A DNA stretch of 64,000 nt, from IMG/VR virus record IMGVR_UViG_3300027749_000063, positions 1 through 64,000 of that record; one strand, given 5' to 3'. Source of the stretch: a virus. The notes beneath the pieces are model-generated. The model was not told the origin of the DNA and ran no database searches. It was given only the letters and a program-made list of their open reading frames with translations. Positions 1-5,080 of this stretch are shown here, piece by piece. Positions within the stretch are counted from its first letter, which is position 1; each line of letters begins with the position of its first letter. The translations under genes and the position numbers were made by a program.

Positions 1-82
1 TTGTTTGTAATACATGATTTTTAATATTAGAGGTTAAACATAAATTAAGGCAACAACTATGCCAATTGGTAATAATTAGAAC

Positions 83-108
83 CTAGGGTAAGATCTCTCC
101 TACCCTAG
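83..108 (-). terminator. hairpin after the 114-560 gene
   Basis: Inverted repeat CTAGGGTA / TACCCTAG with a 10-nt loop lies directly downstream of the stop codon of the minus-strand gene. There is no clear U-tract, so it may be an RNA-stabilising hairpin and not a full terminator. Confidence 0.5.
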
Positions 109-113
109 ATTGA

Positions 114-560
114 TTAACGAACTACAACTTGATCTTTAGTAATAATAATACTACTAGTTCTCTCGATGTGAATGATAGTTCCGTGGAAATCTATCTTAAT
201 CATAGAATTAGCTACGTTTTCTTTGATTGTAGATAGTTTAGGAGCTACTGTAGGTGTTTGGATAGCTCCTAAAGCCATTTTATATGCTTTACGTGCTTTT
301 TGTTTCCGCAAGCGCCTTTTCGTTGCAACCATTCTTGCTGCAGGCTCACTCATTGGAATTAAACCTTGTTTAATCATTTCAGTTCTTACAAGATAAATAA
401 CACCTGCGTTTCTTAACTCAAAATACTGAGGATACTTAGCTTTTACCTCAGAAGCTTTTTTACCAGCTTTAAACTCTGTAAGTAACTCACTAATTGCCTG
501 CTCACTAAAGTTTAACTTGTGAAATGGCCTGTAATTGATTGTTTGTGTTTGGTTTTCCAT
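114..560 (-). CDS. hypothetical basic protein, 148 aa
   Basis: I do not recognise the family. The middle of the protein (about residues 75-95) is very rich in Lys and Arg (motif TKRRLRKQKARKAYK), which suggests nucleic-acid binding. The N-terminal third looks helical and has a pattern like a helix-turn-helix element (ISELLTEFKAGKKASEVKAK), and a short beta-rich segment closes the protein. It starts 30 bases from the end of the next minus-strand gene upstream and has an A-rich leader without a Shine-Dalgarno sequence. A small regulatory DNA-binding protein is possible, but this is inference. Confidence 0.75.
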   Translation of the reverse strand: MENQTQTINYRPFHKLNFSEQAISELLTEFKAGKKASEVKAKYPQYFELRNAGVIYLVRTEMIKQGLIPMSEPAARMVATKRRLRKQKARKAYKMALGAIQTPTVAPKLSTIKENVANSMIKIDFHGTIIHIERTSSIIITKDQVVVR

Positions 561-590
561 AATTTTTTGTTTTTTGTTTTTGTTATTTTG

Positions 591-1121
591 TTATTTTTCA
601 AATGAATACACTATCATTGGGCTCTTGTTAGGGCTTAGATAGCGGTAGATTTCGGTTACTTTGTATCCACTAAAGTCTTCTAATAGTTTAGGAAATACAT
701 TGTAACGAAAGTCATCAAGGTCTTTAGCTCCATAGAATTCTAATTTGTTTCCAAATAATTCTCTTTTACCTTGAATGGTTAGACAAATAGTCTTAGCTGT
801 TGAATCTTGAAAGTAAGAGATGAAGGTATTTACAAGCATTGGACTTAGATTAATACATAAGTCTAGCCATACAAAGTCATATCTGCCCTTAAGGGTAAAG
901 ATGTCTCTGTTTAAATACTCTACATTTTGTGGTTTAAACTTTCTACCACGTTTGTAAGTTTCTGTGTCTAGTTCACAACAAGTGATTTTAGCATTAGGAA
1001 ACTTAGACTCAAAGAGAAAGTTGTCAGCAGGCAGGGATAATATATCCCCACCTGTATACTTTTGACTGATAATCTCTCTGACATCTTCTTTGACTGAATA
1101 GTCTTGAAAGTTAAATGACAT
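591..1121 (-). CDS. methyltransferase-like protein, 176 aa
   Basis: The protein has the order of elements of a class I (Rossmann) methyltransferase: a first strand with GGDILSLPADN (about residues 24-34), an acidic end of strand 2 (ITCCELDTETYKRG, about 46-59), a strand ending in D before a loop (VEYLNRDIF), and the strand-4 motif YDFVWLDLC. The usual GxGxG loop is not evident, so SAM binding is not certain. It is shorter than most complete DNA methyltransferases and has no target-recognition part and no DPPY-type motif. A small-molecule, RNA or protein methyltransferase, or a degenerate fold, are all possible. It lies in a run of small minus-strand genes with short spacers. Confidence 0.55.
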   Translation of the reverse strand: MSFNFQDYSVKEDVREIISQKYTGGDILSLPADNFLFESKFPNAKITCCELDTETYKRGRKFKPQNVEYLNRDIFTLKGRYDFVWLDLCINLSPMLVNTFISYFQDSTAKTICLTIQGKRELFGNKLEFYGAKDLDDFRYNVFPKLLEDFSGYKVTEIYRYLSPNKSPMIVYSFEK

Positions 1122-1141
1122 AATTTATCTGTTAGTTTGTT

Positions 1142-1516
1142 TTAGTCTTGCCAATCAATTACTGATACAACTTCAAGTCGCTCAATAAAAGTCTTAAGAT
1201 AGTTTTTACCTACTCTAATATTACCTAGAACAATGTCTGGTATTATTTCGTAGTCTTGAGGTACAACTACTTCTTCCCGTACAGAAATGATAGTTTGTTT
1301 AGTAGGAAGCTGAGTTAAGGTCTTTAAATACCTTTTCTCATCTAAGATAGAGTCAATGGTGAGATGTTTAAACATGTTACTGATTTCAACTTCTCTAACT
1401 CTCTCTAGTTTTTTAGAGATAAATCGCTTAGTCCTTCCTTGAATAGGAAGTACATTGATAAGAGACTCAGGACTAGCTGAATACACTTTTTCTGCTTTGA
1501 TAATTCTTTTTCTCAT
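1142..1516 (-). CDS. hypothetical protein, 124 aa
   Basis: No recognisable family. The N-terminal half is basic (KRIIKAEKVYS, GRTKRFISKKLERVREVE), the C-terminal half is beta-rich and hydrophobic. No signal peptide or membrane segment is seen. The gene starts 20 bases upstream of the methyltransferase-like gene on the same strand and probably shares its transcript. It lies immediately downstream of the structured RNA locus, from which it is separated by that locus's strong terminator hairpin. Confidence 0.7.
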   Translation of the reverse strand: MRKRIIKAEKVYSASPESLINVLPIQGRTKRFISKKLERVREVEISNMFKHLTIDSILDEKRYLKTLTQLPTKQTIISVREEVVVPQDYEIIPDIVLGNIRVGKNYLKTFIERLEVVSVIDWQD

Positions 1517-1549
1517 TCTGTATAGGTTTAATTATTAGGTTTGAAATAA

Positions 1550-1617
1550 ATTAAAGCAATAAAAAAGGGAAGCTCACACTCTTCCCTTTTTACCCTAACA
1601 GATATGATTGCTTTAAT
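1550..1617 (-). terminator. double-stem terminator of structured RNA
   Basis: Minus-strand AAAAAGGGAAG - 8-nt loop - CTTCCCTTTTTT (1561-1591) is a classic intrinsic terminator. It is enclosed in a second 11-bp stem ATTAAAGCAAT/ATTGCTTTAAT (1550-1560 with 1607-1617). Because the inner stem is A-rich at its base and U-rich at its end it could work in both directions. Confidence 0.75.
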
Positions 1618-1935
1618 ATAGAAAATATGAAAAACTATAGTGTGAGTTCAGCAATAGTTTAAGATAACTAACGAGTGTTAGTTCTTGGTAGTCAAGATAA
1701 GCGCTAACTTACCTTGACTAATAAAGAAAAGCTTTAAGTTTTAAGGGTTACTGATTGAGTGCAATGAGTGACGCCTACCTACTATTAACCCTTTTTCGGT
1801 ATTTAAAACACTCTACTTCTCAATTACAGCTTAAATGCTTCTCTTTATAGTAAGAAGAAGCCCCAAAATCAGATCTTACGGTATGAAGTTGGGGACATTC
1901 TGTAGCCAAGAGATACTATCTCAAGGGGGGAACAC
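1550..1935 (-). ncRNA. candidate large structured RNA
   Basis: This stretch has no ORF of useful size but is dense with inverted repeats. Paired arms are: GAGATA/TATCTC (1910-1922), CCCCAA/TTGGGG (1861-1866 with 1889-1894), AGTCAAG/CTTGACT (1690-1696 with 1713-1719), AACTAAC/GTTAGTT with a 4-nt loop (1666-1683), and an 11-bp outer stem (1550-1560 with 1607-1617) that encloses an 11-bp terminator hairpin (1561-1591). The 8-nt loop of that hairpin (1573-1580) is perfectly complementary to 1639-1646, which would give an 8-bp pseudoknot. A host-type -7 box (TATATTTG on the minus strand, 1938-1945) lies just upstream, so transcription would start near 1930. It sits among phage tRNA genes, as ROOL and GOLLD RNAs do, but I cannot assign it to either. 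Confidence 0.6.
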
Positions 1936-1962
1936 TGCAAATATACTTAAAAACTATAAATC

Positions 1963-1976
1963 AGAGAAGAGAAAAA
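1963..1976 (-). promoter_or_regulatory. CTCTTCTCT motif, copy 1
   Basis: Minus-strand TTTTTCTCTTCTCT directly follows the hairpin GAAAGAAG/CTTCTTTC (1978-2001) at the end of the 1989-2303 gene. It lies upstream of the structured RNA, with a host-type -7 box 17 nt further on. Seven copies of the 9-mer core occur in this 4.5-kb minus-strand region. Confidence 0.5.
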
Positions 1977-1988
1977 GGAAAGAAGGGG

Positions 1989-2303
1989 TTAATCTTCTTT
2001 CAATATTGTAATCTCTGATCCTTTGTGTATATAGATAGGTCCTATATAACCGTCTTTGATGATGTATGTTCTTTCTTCTTCTGGTAACTTATAAGAGATT
2101 ACGTAGTTCCACTCAGAGAATTTAAAGACAAAGCAATCTAAGACTTTAGGAGAAGGATGTTTGCCTTCGCCTATCAGATCCTCTACAAATAATGTATCAG
2201 ATAAAGTAAGAGGCATCATACCCTCTAGACTTTTAATAGGGAATAGTTGGGCTTTCAGGTTACTGAAGCCACATACGATTAAGATTAAGAACAGTTTTTT
2301 CAT
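1989..2303 (-). CDS. small secreted protein, 104 aa
   Basis: The N-terminus is a clear Sec signal peptide: MKK, a hydrophobic core (LFLILIVCGF) and a short polar end before KAQ, typical of Bacteroidota exported proteins ending in A-Q. The mature part of about 85 residues is beta-rich and acidic, of unknown family. A role in the host periplasm or envelope, for example superinfection exclusion, is inference. It starts 4 bases from the stop of the upstream gene. A hairpin overlapping its stop codon ends the unit. Confidence 0.7.
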   Translation of the reverse strand: MKKLFLILIVCGFSNLKAQLFPIKSLEGMMPLTLSDTLFVEDLIGEGKHPSPKVLDCFVFKFSEWNYVISYKLPEEERTYIIKDGYIGPIYIHKGSEITILKED

Positions 2304-2306
2304 TAG

Positions 2307-2525
2307 TTACATGATATAATCTGTAGCTGCATGATGCAATTCTTTTAAAGATTGAGTTGCTTTCTCATACAATTCAATTAATTTAACTGAACTAGGATCG
2401 GGATTCTCATTGTTTGATTCTGTAAGAAACTCAATTCCTTCTTCTAAAGCACGTAATATTGAGCTAATCTCAAGATCTAGATTTAATACGTGTTCAAATA
2501 CATTTCCTGTTACCATTTTTACCAT
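2307..2525 (-). CDS. hypothetical acidic helical protein, 72 aa
   Basis: Unknown family. The whole protein is predicted helical from its heptad-like hydrophobic spacing, is acidic (SNNENPDPSSVKLIELYEKA), and has no membrane segment. It may form a small helical hairpin and act as an inhibitor or adaptor, but nothing in the sequence says of what. The leader is built from AAACTAAAC repeats. It lies directly downstream of the tRNA-Glu gene and may share its transcript. Confidence 0.65.
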   Translation of the reverse strand: MVKMVTGNVFEHVLNLDLEISSILRALEEGIEFLTESNNENPDPSSVKLIELYEKATQSLKELHHAATDYIM

Positions 2526-2550
2526 TTTATTTTTAGTTTAGTTTGTTTAG

Positions 2551-2622
2551 TAGCCTGTAGCGGATTCAAACCACTGTTGCCAAGATGAAATCTTGGAGTC
2601 CTAATCACTAGACGAACAGGCC
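2551..2622 (-). tRNA. tRNA-Glu(UUC)
   Basis: The minus strand folds as a complete cloverleaf of 72 nt: acceptor GGCCTGT/ACAGGCT (first pair G-U), D-arm with GTCTAGTGATTAGGAC, anticodon stem CCAAG/CTTGG with loop ATTTCAT (anticodon TTC), T-arm AGTGG - TTTGAAT - CCGCT, discriminator A. The CTTCGTCTAG-like D region resembles bacterial tRNA-Glu. The CCA end is not encoded. Confidence 0.9.
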
Positions 2623-2636
2623 ATACTTAATTAAGC

Positions 2637-2813
2637 TTATCTATACTCTAGGAATTCTCCATGATAGTAACGCTTAGATTTTTTACCACAACCATGTGGT
2701 ACATTTTTAGAAGTTGCACAACCCTCTAAACAAATACAAATTGTAATTATTAAAGAGAACCATACAAGGGCTTTGAAGGCCGTACTTTCGCTAAAAGGAT
2801 TTTCTGGCTTCAT
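2637..2813 (-). CDS. small lipoprotein-like protein, 58 aa
   Basis: This short gene reads MKPENPFSESTAFKALV, then a hydrophobic stretch (WFSLIITICICL) followed by EGCATSKN. The Cys after the hydrophobic segment resembles a lipobox, although the N-terminal part is long and not basic, so a single-pass membrane protein with a Cys-rich tail is an alternative. The start overlaps the stop of the preceding 31-codon gene by four bases, which supports both as real coupled genes. Function unknown. Confidence 0.55.
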   Translation of the reverse strand: MKPENPFSESTAFKALVWFSLIITICICLEGCATSKNVPHGCGKKSKRYYHGEFLEYR

Positions 2814-2905
2814 AGTCTTGAAATTACTAAGTAGTTAGCATAAGCATCTTCATAGGTCAAAGCCCAGATTCTGTAGCCGTCAATGATAAATAATTGTTTT
2901 TCCAT
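2810..2905 (-). CDS. hypothetical micro-protein, 31 aa
   Basis: It reads MEKQLFIIDGYRIWALTYEDAYANY and a short tail: an alternating beta-strand followed by a helix (ITYEDA-type start), a pattern of small phage proteins with a beta-alpha unit. The start lies 3 bases after the end of the 2909-3115 gene, and the stop overlaps the next ATG, as expected in a translationally coupled operon. No known function. Confidence 0.5.
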   Translation of the reverse strand: MEKQLFIIDGYRIWALTYEDAYANYLVISRL

Positions 2906-2908
2906 TTG

Positions 2909-3115
2909 TTAAGTTGTTAAAAGGTTAAGTTCGCCCTTAAGGGCATTAAAAGGATTCTGAGAGCCTACTTGATCCATTATCTCTCTTAGCTCTTGAGTAT
3001 GTTCTCTGAATTCTATTTCAGAAATAGCAGAAATCGCTTTGAGTACATCAAGTTGCATAAGTAAACGATAACCATTCTCTAGTTGGTTAATCTCTTCTTG
3101 AATTAAGTCATCCAT
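2909..3115 (-). CDS. hypothetical helical protein, 68 aa
   Basis: Unknown family. It is acidic, almost entirely helical by pattern and probably a two-helix bundle; no transmembrane segment. It is packed between two very small genes with spacers of only a few bases, so this set of short genes is likely read from one message. Confidence 0.6.
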   Translation of the reverse strand: MDDLIQEEINQLENGYRLLMQLDVLKAISAISEIEFREHTQELREIMDQVGSQNPFNALKGELNLLTT

Positions 3116-3118
3116 AGC

Positions 3119-3232
3119 TTATAAGAAGTGCCAGCTTTTAAAACCAGCAGAGTTAAGTCTTACCATAATTAATTTACCTTCCTTGTCATAAGCTCTTGCA
3201 AGGATTTTACCTAAAAGGATTTTAGGCTTCAT
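3119..3232 (-). CDS. hypothetical micro-protein, 37 aa
   Basis: It starts MKPKILLGKILARAYDKEGK and ends with a beta-like segment and aromatic residues (SWHFL). It is basic. The first 20 bases of its coding region closely match the start of the 2637-2813 gene (both ATGAAGCC...ATCCTTTTAG), so the two starts may derive from a duplication. It ends three bases before the next gene. Function unknown. Confidence 0.45.
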   Translation of the reverse strand: MKPKILLGKILARAYDKEGKLIMVRLNSAGFKSWHFL

Positions 3233-3251
3233 AACGCTTAGTACTTGTTGA

Positions 3252-3449
3252 TTAATCATTGCTCTTAGATTCTAAGTTATACAAATAAGCCATAACAGCC
3301 ATAAGACAAAGAGTTAAACACTCTACAGCAAAGATGTAATCAAAAGCATCTGTTCCTACTGCTCTAACTAAGTCAGGAATAGTAAGAAGAAATACAATAC
3401 CTGCACATACAGCGATGACAGATAAGAAAGTGGACGGTTTAATTTTCAT
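3252..3449 (-). CDS. two-helix membrane protein, 65 aa
   Basis: Two hydrophobic segments (residues 8-25 and about 38-56) separated by a short loop, with a basic N-terminus and a charged C-terminus. The layout is that of a small inner-membrane protein. It could be an inhibitor of superinfection or a holin-like protein, but it lies among early-type genes far from the endolysin, so a lysis role is unlikely. Its leader is A-rich with AAACTAAA repeats. Confidence 0.6.
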   Translation of the reverse strand: MKIKPSTFLSVIAVCAGIVFLLTIPDLVRAVGTDAFDYIFAVECLTLCLMAVMAYLYNLESKSND

Positions 3450-3473
3450 ATTTAGTTAGTTTTTGTTTTTAGT

Positions 3474-3755
3474 TTAGTTTGTTTTAAATTTAGATACTTG
3501 GTAAAGTAAATCTGCTAGTAGTTCTGGATCTAAATGATCCATAGAAAAGAACTGTTCGCTATCTTCTACATAAGTGATAGTCTTCCAAACATTATCTAGA
3601 GTTAACATTACCCAATCACCCTTAGAGTCCATAACAGTTAATTCTGCAACTTCGCTTTTATACTCACCTTCTTCATAGAATCCTAGTATTGCCATATAAC
3701 CATTTTTAAAATGTACAACAGTACCGTTTTGGTGTTTTTCAAATCCGTAATCCAT
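3474..3755 (-). CDS. hypothetical acidic protein, 93 aa
   Basis: Unknown. Beta-rich first half (GTVVHFKNGYMAILGFYEEG) and an acidic helical tail. No targeting signal. The leader has a striking run of AAACTAAC/AAACTAAAC units, and a 31-bp imperfect palindrome lies 40 bases upstream of the ATG, so this gene may be controlled separately from the RNA genes upstream. Confidence 0.65.
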   Translation of the reverse strand: MDYGFEKHQNGTVVHFKNGYMAILGFYEEGEYKSEVAELTVMDSKGDWVMLTLDNVWKTITYVEDSEQFFSMDHLDPELLADLLYQVSKFKTN

Positions 3756-3793
3756 AAGTTTAGTTTAGTTTAAGTTAGTTAGTTAGTTTAGTT

Positions 3794-3824
3794 TATACTA
3801 GTTGGTATTATACCATTAGGTATA
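3794..3824. repeat. 31-bp imperfect palindrome
   Basis: The core TGGTATTATACCA is a perfect 6+1+6 palindrome, and the flanks TATAC...GTATA extend the symmetry. It sits between the terminator of the tRNA-Leu-like transcript and the start of the 3474-3755 gene. It could be an operator for a dimeric repressor or, in RNA, a hairpin at the 5' end of the message. Confidence 0.5.
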
Positions 3825-3852
3825 AAAAAGTTAAAAGAAGTTAAAAGAAGTT

Positions 3853-3906
3853 AAAAAAACTACAAGGTCCTCTAGACGTGTTAGTAGGATAAACCATACC
3901 TTGTAG
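3853..3906 (-). terminator. terminator after tRNA-Leu-like gene
   Basis: Minus-strand CTACAAGGT / ACCTTGTAG (9 bp, 29-nt loop) followed by seven U. It lies a few bases past the 3' end of the tRNA-like gene, so that RNA ends here. Confidence 0.75.
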
Positions 3907-3909
3907 TAG

Positions 3910-4026
3910 TAGTACATTTGGGATTCAAACCCAAGATAGTATCCATCAGCTCAACGATAAGCAGATACTCCCATTGGGGTGCCGTCATTCGTTGATTGGG
4001 AACGTGTGTCACCTCGCCTATGTACT
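3910..4026 (-). tRNA. tRNA-Leu(CAA)-like, interrupted anticodon loop
   Basis: The minus strand has all parts of a type II tRNA in order: acceptor AGTACAT/ATGTACT (7 bp), D-arm GCG...CGT with GG in the loop, anticodon stem TCCCA/TGGGA, long variable arm closed by GTATC/GATAC, T-arm TTGGG - TTTGAAT - CCCAA, and discriminator A73 as in leucine tRNAs. The anticodon loop is 23 nt and not 7. It begins A-T-CAA and ends AA, so removing 16 nt (3976-3991) leaves the loop ATCAAAA with anticodon CAA. Position 8 is A and not the usual U, and CCA is not encoded. It may be an intron-bearing gene, a tRNA mimic, or a decayed tRNA. Confidence 0.6.
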
Positions 4027-4108
4027 ATTTAAGATTATTTACCTACCAAGCCAAAAGTTCGCTTAGTCTTTGTAAGGACATCTTCTGGATAAAGAAGATG
4101 GTAATAAG

Positions 4109-4117
4109 AGAGAAGAG
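4109..4117 (-). promoter_or_regulatory. CTCTTCTCT motif, copy 2
   Basis: Minus-strand CTCTTCTCT, within a longer CT-rich tract, 82 bases upstream of the tRNA-Leu-like gene. A hairpin CATCTTCT/AGAAGATG (4081-4102) follows it. No coding region starts here, so the motif is linked to an RNA gene. Confidence 0.4.
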
Positions 4118-4129
4118 AGAAGACATAAG

Positions 4130-4513
4130 AATAAGGAAGAAAGGGAAAGGGTAATCCTTTAATGTCTTTTAATGTCTTTTAAGGTTATTTAACGTAAAGT
4201 CAACAATTTATATATAACGTACCATGTCAACCCCACAATTACCCACTTTTAAGTGTTAAATAGAAGATTGAAGGGAGTGGTTTCCCACTTTCTACCACTA
4301 CATATACCCCCCAATTGTCAGTAAAAAGTTAAACATTATGACAATTGTCTCCCAAAACACGGGGTTATGACTTACAAAAGTTAAACAAAACCTAAATCAG
4401 GTAGTTTGATGACATTAGACTGACAATATACCCGCAATATAAGAGAGAGATAAGAGAGTGATAAGAGAATTTAATTTCTCTTCTTCTCACTGCTGTCTGA
4501 TTACTGTCTGATT
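4130..4513. other. non-coding region with repeats
   Basis: No gene is seen here on either strand. It holds a 10-bp tandem repeat (ATGTCTTTTA, near 4161-4185), a 9-bp inverted repeat CAATTGTCA / TGACAATTG (4312-4320 and 4339-4347) of which the second arm is part of the palindrome GACAATTGTC, and purine-rich AGAGAG tracts (4440-4475). The sequence may be an operator or replication-related control region. Confidence 0.45.
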
Positions 4514-4515
4514 TA

Positions 4516-4534
4516 GGGGGTATTTCTACCCCCC
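4516..4534 (-). terminator. hairpin after the 4541-5080 gene
   Basis: GGGGGTA - tetraloop (GAAA on the minus strand) - TACCCCC, seven base pairs, a few bases beyond the stop codon. There is no long U-tract, but the stem is strong. Confidence 0.6.
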
Positions 4535-4540
4535 TTCAGA

Positions 4541-5080
4541 TTAATCTTGCTCTACTGCTACGCTTTCTACCACATTCTCTGTGATAGCACTGAGGTCAGT
4601 CTTACGTACAAGGATGTCAAGCATCTCTGCATCGTAAGCACGAAGGAATGACTTACGGTAAATTGCTTTTCCGTTCTCGTCTGTTACCTTAGCACCTGAG
4701 CGGTCTTTCTTGTAGTTACTTTCGTAGACTACGGCTTGACCTTTGTCATTACCTACAACACCTAAAGCTACTGCTTCTGCAAGTGATGTTGTTTCGATTA
4801 CTTGAATACCATAGTTGTTGTTTACCAACTGTGATAGATTTACATCTAACTGAACAGGGGAGTCTTTGTCACCTGTAATAGTAGAAGCGTCCATTCCAAA
4901 AATCTTTGCGAACTTTTCTTCGCTAAAATTCTGAATGCAAGTCTTTGTCCATTCGCTACCTTTACCTGTAAAGACAGCCATAGGATTGTTGTTGCGAATA
5001 CCGCAAAGAACTGAGAGAGAGTTTGCTTTGTTGCGCCAAACGCTTAAAGCAATGATGGGAGAAATAGATGGGTTAAACAT
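4541..5080 (-). CDS. hypothetical protein, 179 aa
   Basis: Unknown family. It reads as an alpha/beta protein with small beta-strands (SVLCGIRNNNPMAVFTGKG) near the N-terminus, a central region with repeated hydrophobic strands and an acidic C-terminal tail (ENVVESVAVEQD). An acidic tail after a beta-rich core is typical of phage single-strand DNA-binding proteins, but no other mark of that family is visible, so this is only a hypothesis. It is the largest gene between the RNA genes and the KilA-N gene, and it has its own hairpin terminator. Confidence 0.7.
   Translation of the reverse strand: MFNPSISPIIALSVWRNKANSLSVLCGIRNNNPMAVFTGKGSEWTKTCIQNFSEEKFAKIFGMDASTITGDKDSPVQLDVNLSQLVNNNYGIQVIETTSLAEAVALGVVGNDKGQAVVYESNYKKDRSGAKVTDENGKAIYRKSFLRAYDAEMLDILVRKTDLSAITENVVESVAVEQD

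What the first reader, a model, noticed from the sequence alone, without database searches (positions are those of the whole stretch)
1545..1965. Structured RNA with a predicted pseudoknot near phage tRNAs
About 390 nt without a gene hold at least six separate inverted repeats, an 11-bp outer stem around an 11-bp terminator hairpin, and an 8-nt terminator loop that is perfectly complementary to an upstream segment (1573-1580 with 1639-1646). A host-type -7 box starts it and a terminator ends it. Large ornate RNAs such as ROOL and GOLLD occur beside phage tRNAs; this may be a relative or a new class.
Basis: partly seen in the sequence, partly recalled or inferred. Interest (0 to 1): 0.75.

Follow-up and report, generated by a model that had tools for sequence, protein, structure and literature searches.

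The report
Phage RNA mimicking a bacterial antitoxin
A short non-coding RNA of a virus that infects Bacteroidota carries a copy of the RNA 'safety catch' that keeps a bacterial suicide toxin (AbiF, an ancestor of Cas13) switched off, which suggests that the virus uses RNA mimicry to disarm this defence.

Summary
The structured non-coding RNA is real. It lies on the minus strand, about 375 nt, between a host-type TATATTTG box (1938-1945) and a terminator (1562-1591). The predicted terminator-loop pseudoknot (1573-1580 with 1639-1646) exists and is conserved; its covariation rests on one two-clade difference, plus an analogous pairing of different sequence in a distant relative. The RNA is not a ROOL/GOLLD relative (no Rfam match) but a modular RNA operon whose parts are swapped between related phages.
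One part can be identified. A hairpin at 1852-1899 carries the 16-nt core CAUACCGUAAGAUCUG. In 54 of 70 sites in bacterial genomes this hairpin precedes an Abi_2/AbiF toxin gene, where the RNA antitoxin is expected. A covariance model built only from such bacterial hairpins finds the window copy as its sole match in the 99-kb phage record (E about 1e-7). In viral contigs the hairpin is an orphan: 1 of 120 loci has Abi_2, and 0 of 25 phage records. Its stem covaries strongly while the core persists. A second, unrelated AbiF RNA type is also an orphan in 25 viral stretches, in tandem with the first in 16.
Most likely function: antitoxin mimicry against host AbiF. Binding is inferred, not shown. 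The other modules are unexplained.

The parts
1938..1945 (-). TATATTTG, Bacteroidota-type -7 box at the 5' end of the RNA
   Evidence: a TAnnTTTG box 28-106 nt upstream of the AbiF-type hairpin in 8 of 10 arrays printed (window included); absent within 130 nt in L005 and L006
1906..1926 (-). H0 hairpin CCUUGAGAUAGUAUCUCUUGG, 5' of the AbiF-type hairpin; same place and shape, other stem letters, in many phage copies
   Evidence: read by eye, not counted; folding alone not better than chance in the window (z -0.41)
1852..1899 (-). M1: AbiF-antitoxin-type hairpin; G-C, bulged U, six-pair stem, internal loop, CAUACCGUAAGAUCUG core (1870-1885) with a GUAA tetraloop, U-rich tail
   Evidence: model R1 from bacterial AbiF-linked hairpins: 38.3 bits, E 1.1e-7, the only match in the 99-kb record at E up to 10; covariation; unforced fold gives the same structure
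1723..1846 (-). M2: ~124-nt domain, 96% mean column identity over 8 phage copies, closed by a 10-bp stem; function unknown
   Evidence: z -2.64
1689..1720 (-). M3: long perfect hairpin; other stem letters in relatives; followed by ACCA in the window
   Evidence: z -7.26
1666..1683 (-). small hairpin AACUAAC-ACUC-GUUAGUU
1607..1655 (-). 3' domain: helix 1650-1655/1607-1612 around an inner hairpin 1635-1639/1617-1621
   Evidence: one double change in each of the two helices between two clades
1639..1646 (-). CUCACACU, upstream strand of the pseudoknot
   Evidence: CUUACACU in L010 and L012-L015
1562..1591 (-). intrinsic terminator hairpin, 8-nt loop AGUGUGAG (1573-1580) pairing with 1639-1646
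   Evidence: loop AGUGUAAG in the second clade; in L005/L011-type arrays loops UUAUUGGG/GUAUUGGA face an upstream hairpin loop CCAAUA (by eye)
1142..1516 (-). 124-aa gene downstream of the RNA, unknown function; used to find the relatives

Best explanation
The region is a short phage RNA operon, transcribed from the minus strand and ended by a pseudoknotted terminator. Its identifiable working part is a hairpin that copies the RNA antitoxin of a clade of Bacteroidota AbiF (Abi_2, HEPN RNase) toxin systems. During infection the RNA would bind host AbiF as its own antitoxin does and hold the toxin inactive after the host's RNA supply collapses, so that abortive infection fails. SHOWN here: the hairpin's structure, its link to AbiF in bacteria, its orphan state in phages, and its tandem arrangement with a second AbiF RNA type in other phages. 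INFERRED: transcription, binding to AbiF, neutralisation and benefit to the phage. UNKNOWN: the roles of M2, M3, H0 and the 3' pseudoknot; a protective 3' end is my guess for the last.
For: Bacterial side: the 18-mer GCATACCGTAAGATCTGC hits 69 stretches in genome contigs, 68 of them Bacteroidota by title (lineages from my own knowledge). An Abi_2 gene lies within 1.5 kb downstream on the same strand at 53 of 70 sites as scripted, 54 after correcting L162, mostly starting 35-50 nt after the core's first base. 49 of 64 downstream ORFs match Pfam Abi_2; 7 of 7 tested match PADLOC AbiD, E 1e-65 or better. The family has a solved AbiF-RNA complex, 8vz6. Transfer to the phage: model R1, built only from bacterial AbiF-linked hairpins, finds the window copy (E 1.1e-7) and 13 of 15 relatives that were found by a neighbouring gene, not by the motif. 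Orphan state: no Abi_2 in this record, in 119 of 120 viral loci, or in 25 phage records, while the control contig L112 is found. Selection: in 23 distinct viral hairpins 96.6% of cells pair (shuffles 75.8%), 7 of 9 pairs have double changes, 0 of 500 shuffles reach the covariation score. Second line: other Bacteroidota AbiF genes carry a different RNA upstream; its pattern hits 25 viral stretches, none of the 26 loci tested has Abi_2, and an M1-like core lies 102-237 nt downstream in 16 of 25. Precedents: RCd22 neutralises AbiF in trans (PMC12373285, abstract and named sections read); phage pseudo-ToxI (PMC3475682, abstract); RNA anti-CRISPRs (PMC10651486, passages).
Against: No transcript, binding or protection data. 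16 of 70 bacterial sites lack Abi_2 nearby (2 at contig ends; 4 precede a type I restriction gene), so the motif may have another use there. L197 and L199 are counted as linked, but their toxin gene has its own second RNA type between it and the hairpin. The window copy is one of the weaker phage matches (38.3 bits against 57.4 in L014) and L003 and L010 give no match. The exact 16-mer search favours conserved cores; in phages found otherwise one to several core letters differ. M1-type AbiF is uncommon: one of 28 Abi_2-bearing genomes in a 296-genome sample had a strong R1 match. The host of this phage, and whether it has AbiF, are unknown. M1 is a small part of the RNA.
Confidence: 0.72

Rival explanations
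1. M1 is a general Bacteroidota terminator or RNA-processing hairpin, used by AbiF leaders and by phage genes alike; no mimicry.
For: In many phages M1 follows a stop codon directly and is followed by a U-run (L023, L025, L110). AbiF RNAs themselves end in terminators (PMC12373285).
Against: The core is rare in bacteria (69 stretches among 84,980 species genomes) and mostly before Abi_2. A terminator needs no fixed 16-nt core. The second AbiF RNA type recurs beside it in phages.
Confidence: 0.12
2. Remnant of a phage-borne AbiF toxin-antitoxin module whose toxin was lost; the RNA is a relic.
For: AbiF does occur in prophages (C. difficile prophages, PMC12373285; L112 here is a contig classed as viral with Abi_2).
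Against: 0 of 25 phage records have Abi_2; stems covary under selection; two RNA types sit in tandem. Relics would decay.
Confidence: 0.06
3. A large ornate RNA (ROOL/GOLLD-like) with a structural role of its own, in which M1 is incidental.
For: Size, strong folding, conserved pseudoknot, association of phage M1 with tRNAs (31 of 95 within 600 nt, 0.108 at random positions).
Against: No Rfam match; module content differs between close relatives; M1 also occurs alone.
Confidence: 0.06
4. Decayed tRNA cluster: leftovers of phage tRNA genes.
For: Relatives have tRNA-Leu-like elements with odd inserts in the same array.
Against: The window copy holds none; M1, M2 and the 3' domain are not tRNA-like and are conserved.
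Confidence: 0.04

Closest known systems
AbiF RNA antitoxins (AbiFr; RCd22; Rfam RF03085 abiF)
   Same: Short hairpin upstream of Abi_2; outer stem, inner short stem, U-run; RCd22 works in trans (PMC12373285)
   Different: The M1 core is not matched by RF03085; in the phage there is no toxin gene, and the hairpin sits in a multi-module RNA
Pseudo-ToxI of phage PhiTE
   Same: Phage-encoded copy of a type III RNA antitoxin without the toxin (PMC3475682, abstract)
   Different: Other toxin family; here it appears standing and widespread in phages rather than an escape expansion; no functional test
RNA anti-CRISPRs (Racrs)
   Same: Orphan phage RNA imitating the RNA ligand of a defence protein (PMC10651486, passages)
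   Different: Target is an AbiF toxin, not a Cas complex
abiF sRNA in cyanophage S-CREM1
   Same: AbiF-type RNA in a lytic phage (PMC9964418, passages)
   Different: RF03085 type, cyanophage, single copy; in the passages seen no antitoxin-mimic function is proposed
ROOL and GOLLD RNAs
   Different: No match to any Rfam family

Membership tests
Bacteroidota AbiF antitoxin hairpin (M1 type, defined here) | Stem with bulged U plus CAUACCGUAAGAUCUG core, as modelled from AbiF-linked copies | tested here: met
   R1, 38.3 bits, E 1.1e-7
Bacteroidota AbiF antitoxin hairpin (M1 type, defined here) | Lies directly upstream of an Abi_2 gene | tested here: not met
   No Abi_2 in the 99-kb record: an orphan, so 'antitoxin-like', not a TA system
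Bacteroidota AbiF antitoxin hairpin (M1 type, defined here) | Binds and neutralises AbiF | not testable with these tools
   needs binding and toxicity assays
Rfam RF03085 abiF | Score above the family's gathering threshold | tested here: not met
   No match in the window at gathering, nor in 1-5000 at E up to 5
Second Bacteroidota AbiF RNA type (model R2) | Match to R2 in the window | tested here: not met
   No window match at E up to 5
ROOL / GOLLD | Match to the Rfam model | tested here: not met
RNA-based anti-defence mimic (pseudo-ToxI, Racr kind) | Phage RNA shares the ligand structure of a host defence RNA, without its partner gene | tested here: met
RNA-based anti-defence mimic (pseudo-ToxI, Racr kind) | Expressed in infection and protects the phage | not testable with these tools
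   no RNA-seq or plaque data
tRNA gene cluster | tRNA genes inside the RNA | tested here: not met
   only tRNA-Glu at 2550-2622

The most novel reading that the evidence does not exclude
Bacteroidota phages carry swappable RNA cassettes in which several modules (two AbiF antitoxin types, tRNA-Leu-like decoys, M2 and others) each imitate the RNA ligand or substrate of a different RNA-gated or RNA-cutting host defence: a multi-target RNA counter-defence operon of which the window holds one version.
Probability: 0.35. Interest if true: 0.92.

Novelty: new variant of a known kind. Interest (0 to 1): 0.8.

Why it matters
AbiF is a type III toxin-antitoxin system held to be the ancestor of Cas13 (PMC12737573, PMC12373285). 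Orphan copies of its antitoxin in many uncultivated phages, in two sequence types often in tandem, would mean that AbiF exerts real pressure on phages and that RNA mimicry is a common answer in Bacteroidota. It gives a concrete starting point for decoding phage RNA arrays, and the loop-stem rules give candidate AbiF inhibitors to test in laboratory strains.

Tried and rejected
ROOL/GOLLD relative: no Rfam match. Isolated phages or plasmids with the RNA: only chance-level matches. M2 as antisense to host exbD: one of 395 genomes matched antisense to exbD (L263), but 20 of 20 other ExbD-family regions gave scores within the range of 100 shuffles (most are another paralogue); treated as chance. 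M2 and the L262 190-nt module in bacterial genomes: 2 of 395 weak matches each; L264, L315 and L316 were not examined. The phage-only terminator core of form 2: 0 of 395 genomes, 24 viral stretches. Phage sk1, where a DNA region was reported to protect against AbiF (title seen in a reference list): no abiF match at E up to 10. The neighbouring 176-aa protein found nothing in isolated phages, and the genes next to the RNA had no PHROG. A first reading of 'the core is invariant' was dropped: in phages found without the core one to several letters differ.

Rows dropped: eight loci judged chance hits by eye (no stem: L019, L031, L058, L068, L069, L070, L076, L123) and L112 were left out; L123 was kept, and R1 later gave it 46.5 bits. 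One search used 23 of 29 viral sequences of the 11-nt geometry; six of another form were left out by eye. One search used the 23 distinct bacterial hairpins not on a by-hand list of 16 loci without Abi_2 found. One search covered 100 of the viral loci then held.

Full report
What is there. The window is part of a 99,219-base virus record with terminase, portal and major head proteins (PHROGs). The genes flanking the finding are on the minus strand. Between the 104-aa gene (1989-2303) and the 124-aa gene (1142-1516) lies a gap that starts, reading the minus strand, with TATATTTG (1938-1945) and ends with a terminator hairpin (1562-1591). The minus strand folds at -105 kcal/mol, z -4.84; the plus strand z is -3.33. 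Rfam reports nothing above threshold in the window.

Relatives. The 124-aa gene finds 15 viral loci, three at 95-97% and twelve at 50-55% identity. Upstream of it, in the eight loci printed, is a gene-poor RNA stretch whose content changes: an M1 hairpin, tRNA-Leu-like elements with long inserts, a ~124-nt domain M2, a long hairpin M3, and a terminator domain. The window copy resembles L002 with the tRNA-like element missing. This is a modular RNA operon, not a fixed large RNA.

The pseudoknot. In six distinct 3' domains all 138 cells of a 23-pair model are paired, and each of four helices, the loop pairing included, has one double change. The six fall into two clades, so each is probably one event: support, not proof. 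In the L005/L011/L109 type the sequence is entirely different, yet a hairpin loop CCAAUA faces terminator loops UUAUUGGG or GUAUUGGA (by eye).

Identity of M1. In bacterial genomes the 18-mer gave 69 stretches, all but one titled as Bacteroidota (lineages from my own knowledge). Downstream, mostly 35-50 nt after the core's first base, starts a ~300-aa gene: 49 of 64 ORFs taken match Pfam Abi_2, 7 of 7 tested match PADLOC AbiD, and one matches PDB 8vz6 at E 2.6e-42, the AbiF-RNA complex described in PMC12737573 and PMC12373285 (passages and named sections). By tblastn 53 of 70 sites have Abi_2 within 1.5 kb; one L162 site was miscounted, so 54. Of the 16 others, two are at contig ends and four precede a type I restriction gene. 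L197 and L199 are inside the 54 although their toxin gene has its own RNA of another type.

AbiF RNAs in general. In an even sample of 296 Bacteroidota genomes 28 had strong Abi_2. Most of their upstream regions show a hairpin of another sequence (ACGCUUCCC...AGCGYACC type), some close to Rfam abiF. M1 is thus the RNA of one AbiF clade, apart from Rfam RF03085, which does not match it.

Transfer to the phage. Model R1 was built from 23 distinct bacterial hairpins. It matches the window at 1852-1899(-), 38.3 bits, E 1.1e-7, and 13 of 15 relatives, not L003 and L010. It is the only match in the 99-kb record at E up to 10. In 100 viral loci, nearly all chosen by motif, it gives 91 matches at E up to 0.01, 46 of them below 1e-6; L256, L257 and L262, found by the 3' domain, are included with one core change each. 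In 18 further loci found by a phage terminator core, 11 match below 1e-3, and several others show more changed cores.

Orphan state. Abi_2 is absent from the window's record, from 119 of 120 viral loci, and from 25 of 26 viral records searched whole; the one with Abi_2 is L112, a 17-kb contig kept as control. The completeness of these records is not known.

Selection. For 23 distinct viral hairpins 96.6% of 207 cells pair (shuffled 75.8, sd 1.8; slid 24.8-46.4), 7 of 9 pairs have double changes, and the covariation score is 0.588 against 0.180 (0 of 500). An unforced fold of the window hairpin gives the same outer and inner stems with a GUAA tetraloop. In L012, L013 and L015 the tetraloop is replaced by a longer hairpin while the rest of the core stays.

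A second AbiF RNA in phages. The other bacterial type was turned into a pattern and scanned: 25 viral stretches. None of 26 loci (the 25 plus L324) has an Abi_2 gene by tblastn with 18 query proteins. In 16 of 25 an M1-like core lies 102-237 nt downstream on the same strand; in L039 it is 7.4 kb away; 8 have none in the DNA held, L340 being cut short. Two RNAs defined by two different toxin clades thus sit in tandem in phage contigs where neither toxin was found. The window itself has only M1.

Mechanism. AbiF is a HEPN RNase neutralised by an RNA hairpin; RCd22 of C. difficile does so in trans (PMC12373285, abstract and sections 7 and 13). A phage that stops host transcription would release AbiF once the host RNA decays; a phage copy would keep AbiF bound. 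This is the pseudo-ToxI logic (PMC3475682, abstract). Every biochemical step is inferred.

What stays open. M2 is found in phage contigs only (8 stretches; no convincing bacterial copy in 395 genomes). M3, H0 and the tRNA-like elements have no tested role. That all modules are defence decoys is my bold reading.

Print status. Searches and 111 of the held open-access library listed no paper that, by title and abstract start, treats orphan AbiF antitoxins in Bacteroidota phages. The key paper (Zilberzwige-Tal 2025, Cell) was seen only as a reference and may mention some. PMC9964418 reports an RF03085 abiF sRNA in a lytic cyanophage (passages).

Noticed in passing
L002, L004, L010-L014, L109, L134, L256, L262: tRNA-Leu-like elements (AGTCAGGTGGCGG...GGTAGACGC...ACAGGTTCAAATCCTGTCCTGACTAC) with long odd inserts in place of the anticodon region recur in phage RNA arrays; possible decoys. 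The D-arm motif was within 600 nt of M1 in 16 of 95 viral sites on the same strand, 0 on the other.
   Followed up: partly
window 1723-1846 (-) and L002, L004, L012, L014, L140, L141, L142: M2, a ~124-nt RNA domain almost identical between phages whose neighbouring protein is only about 50% alike; in L140-L142 it sits beside tRNA-like sequence.
   Followed up: partly
L148, L185, L191, L202: M1 hairpin upstream of a type I restriction (HsdR-like) gene instead of AbiF; in L153, L198, L199 and L209 AbiF is followed by such a gene (by eye).
   Followed up: no
L045, L011, L256, L262, L317-L334: A phage RNA of another build: H0-like hairpin, M1 often with CUCACU 3' of the core, GUUACU/AGUAAC hairpin, terminator with interior GUAAGNNUGNYUGRUCAAYAGNAACUGCU (24 viral stretches, 0 of 395 bacterial genomes).
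   Followed up: partly
L262 about 600-790 (-); L005 about 3590-3780: A further ~190-nt RNA module with long matching ends, next to a normal tRNA-Leu in the same array.
   Followed up: partly
L220 upstream of its Abi_2 gene: Two AbiF-type hairpins of different sequence in tandem before one toxin gene.
   Followed up: no
L136 1234-1293 (-): Sub-threshold hammerhead type III match (36.1 bits, E 3.6e-4; gathering 48.5) in a phage contig with M1.
   Followed up: no
L134 780-1248 (-): tmRNA match above threshold (54 bits) in a phage contig with M1 and tRNA-like elements.
   Followed up: no
window 4541-5080 (-): Weak PHROG match to a MazF-like growth inhibitor (E 0.0047).
   Followed up: no
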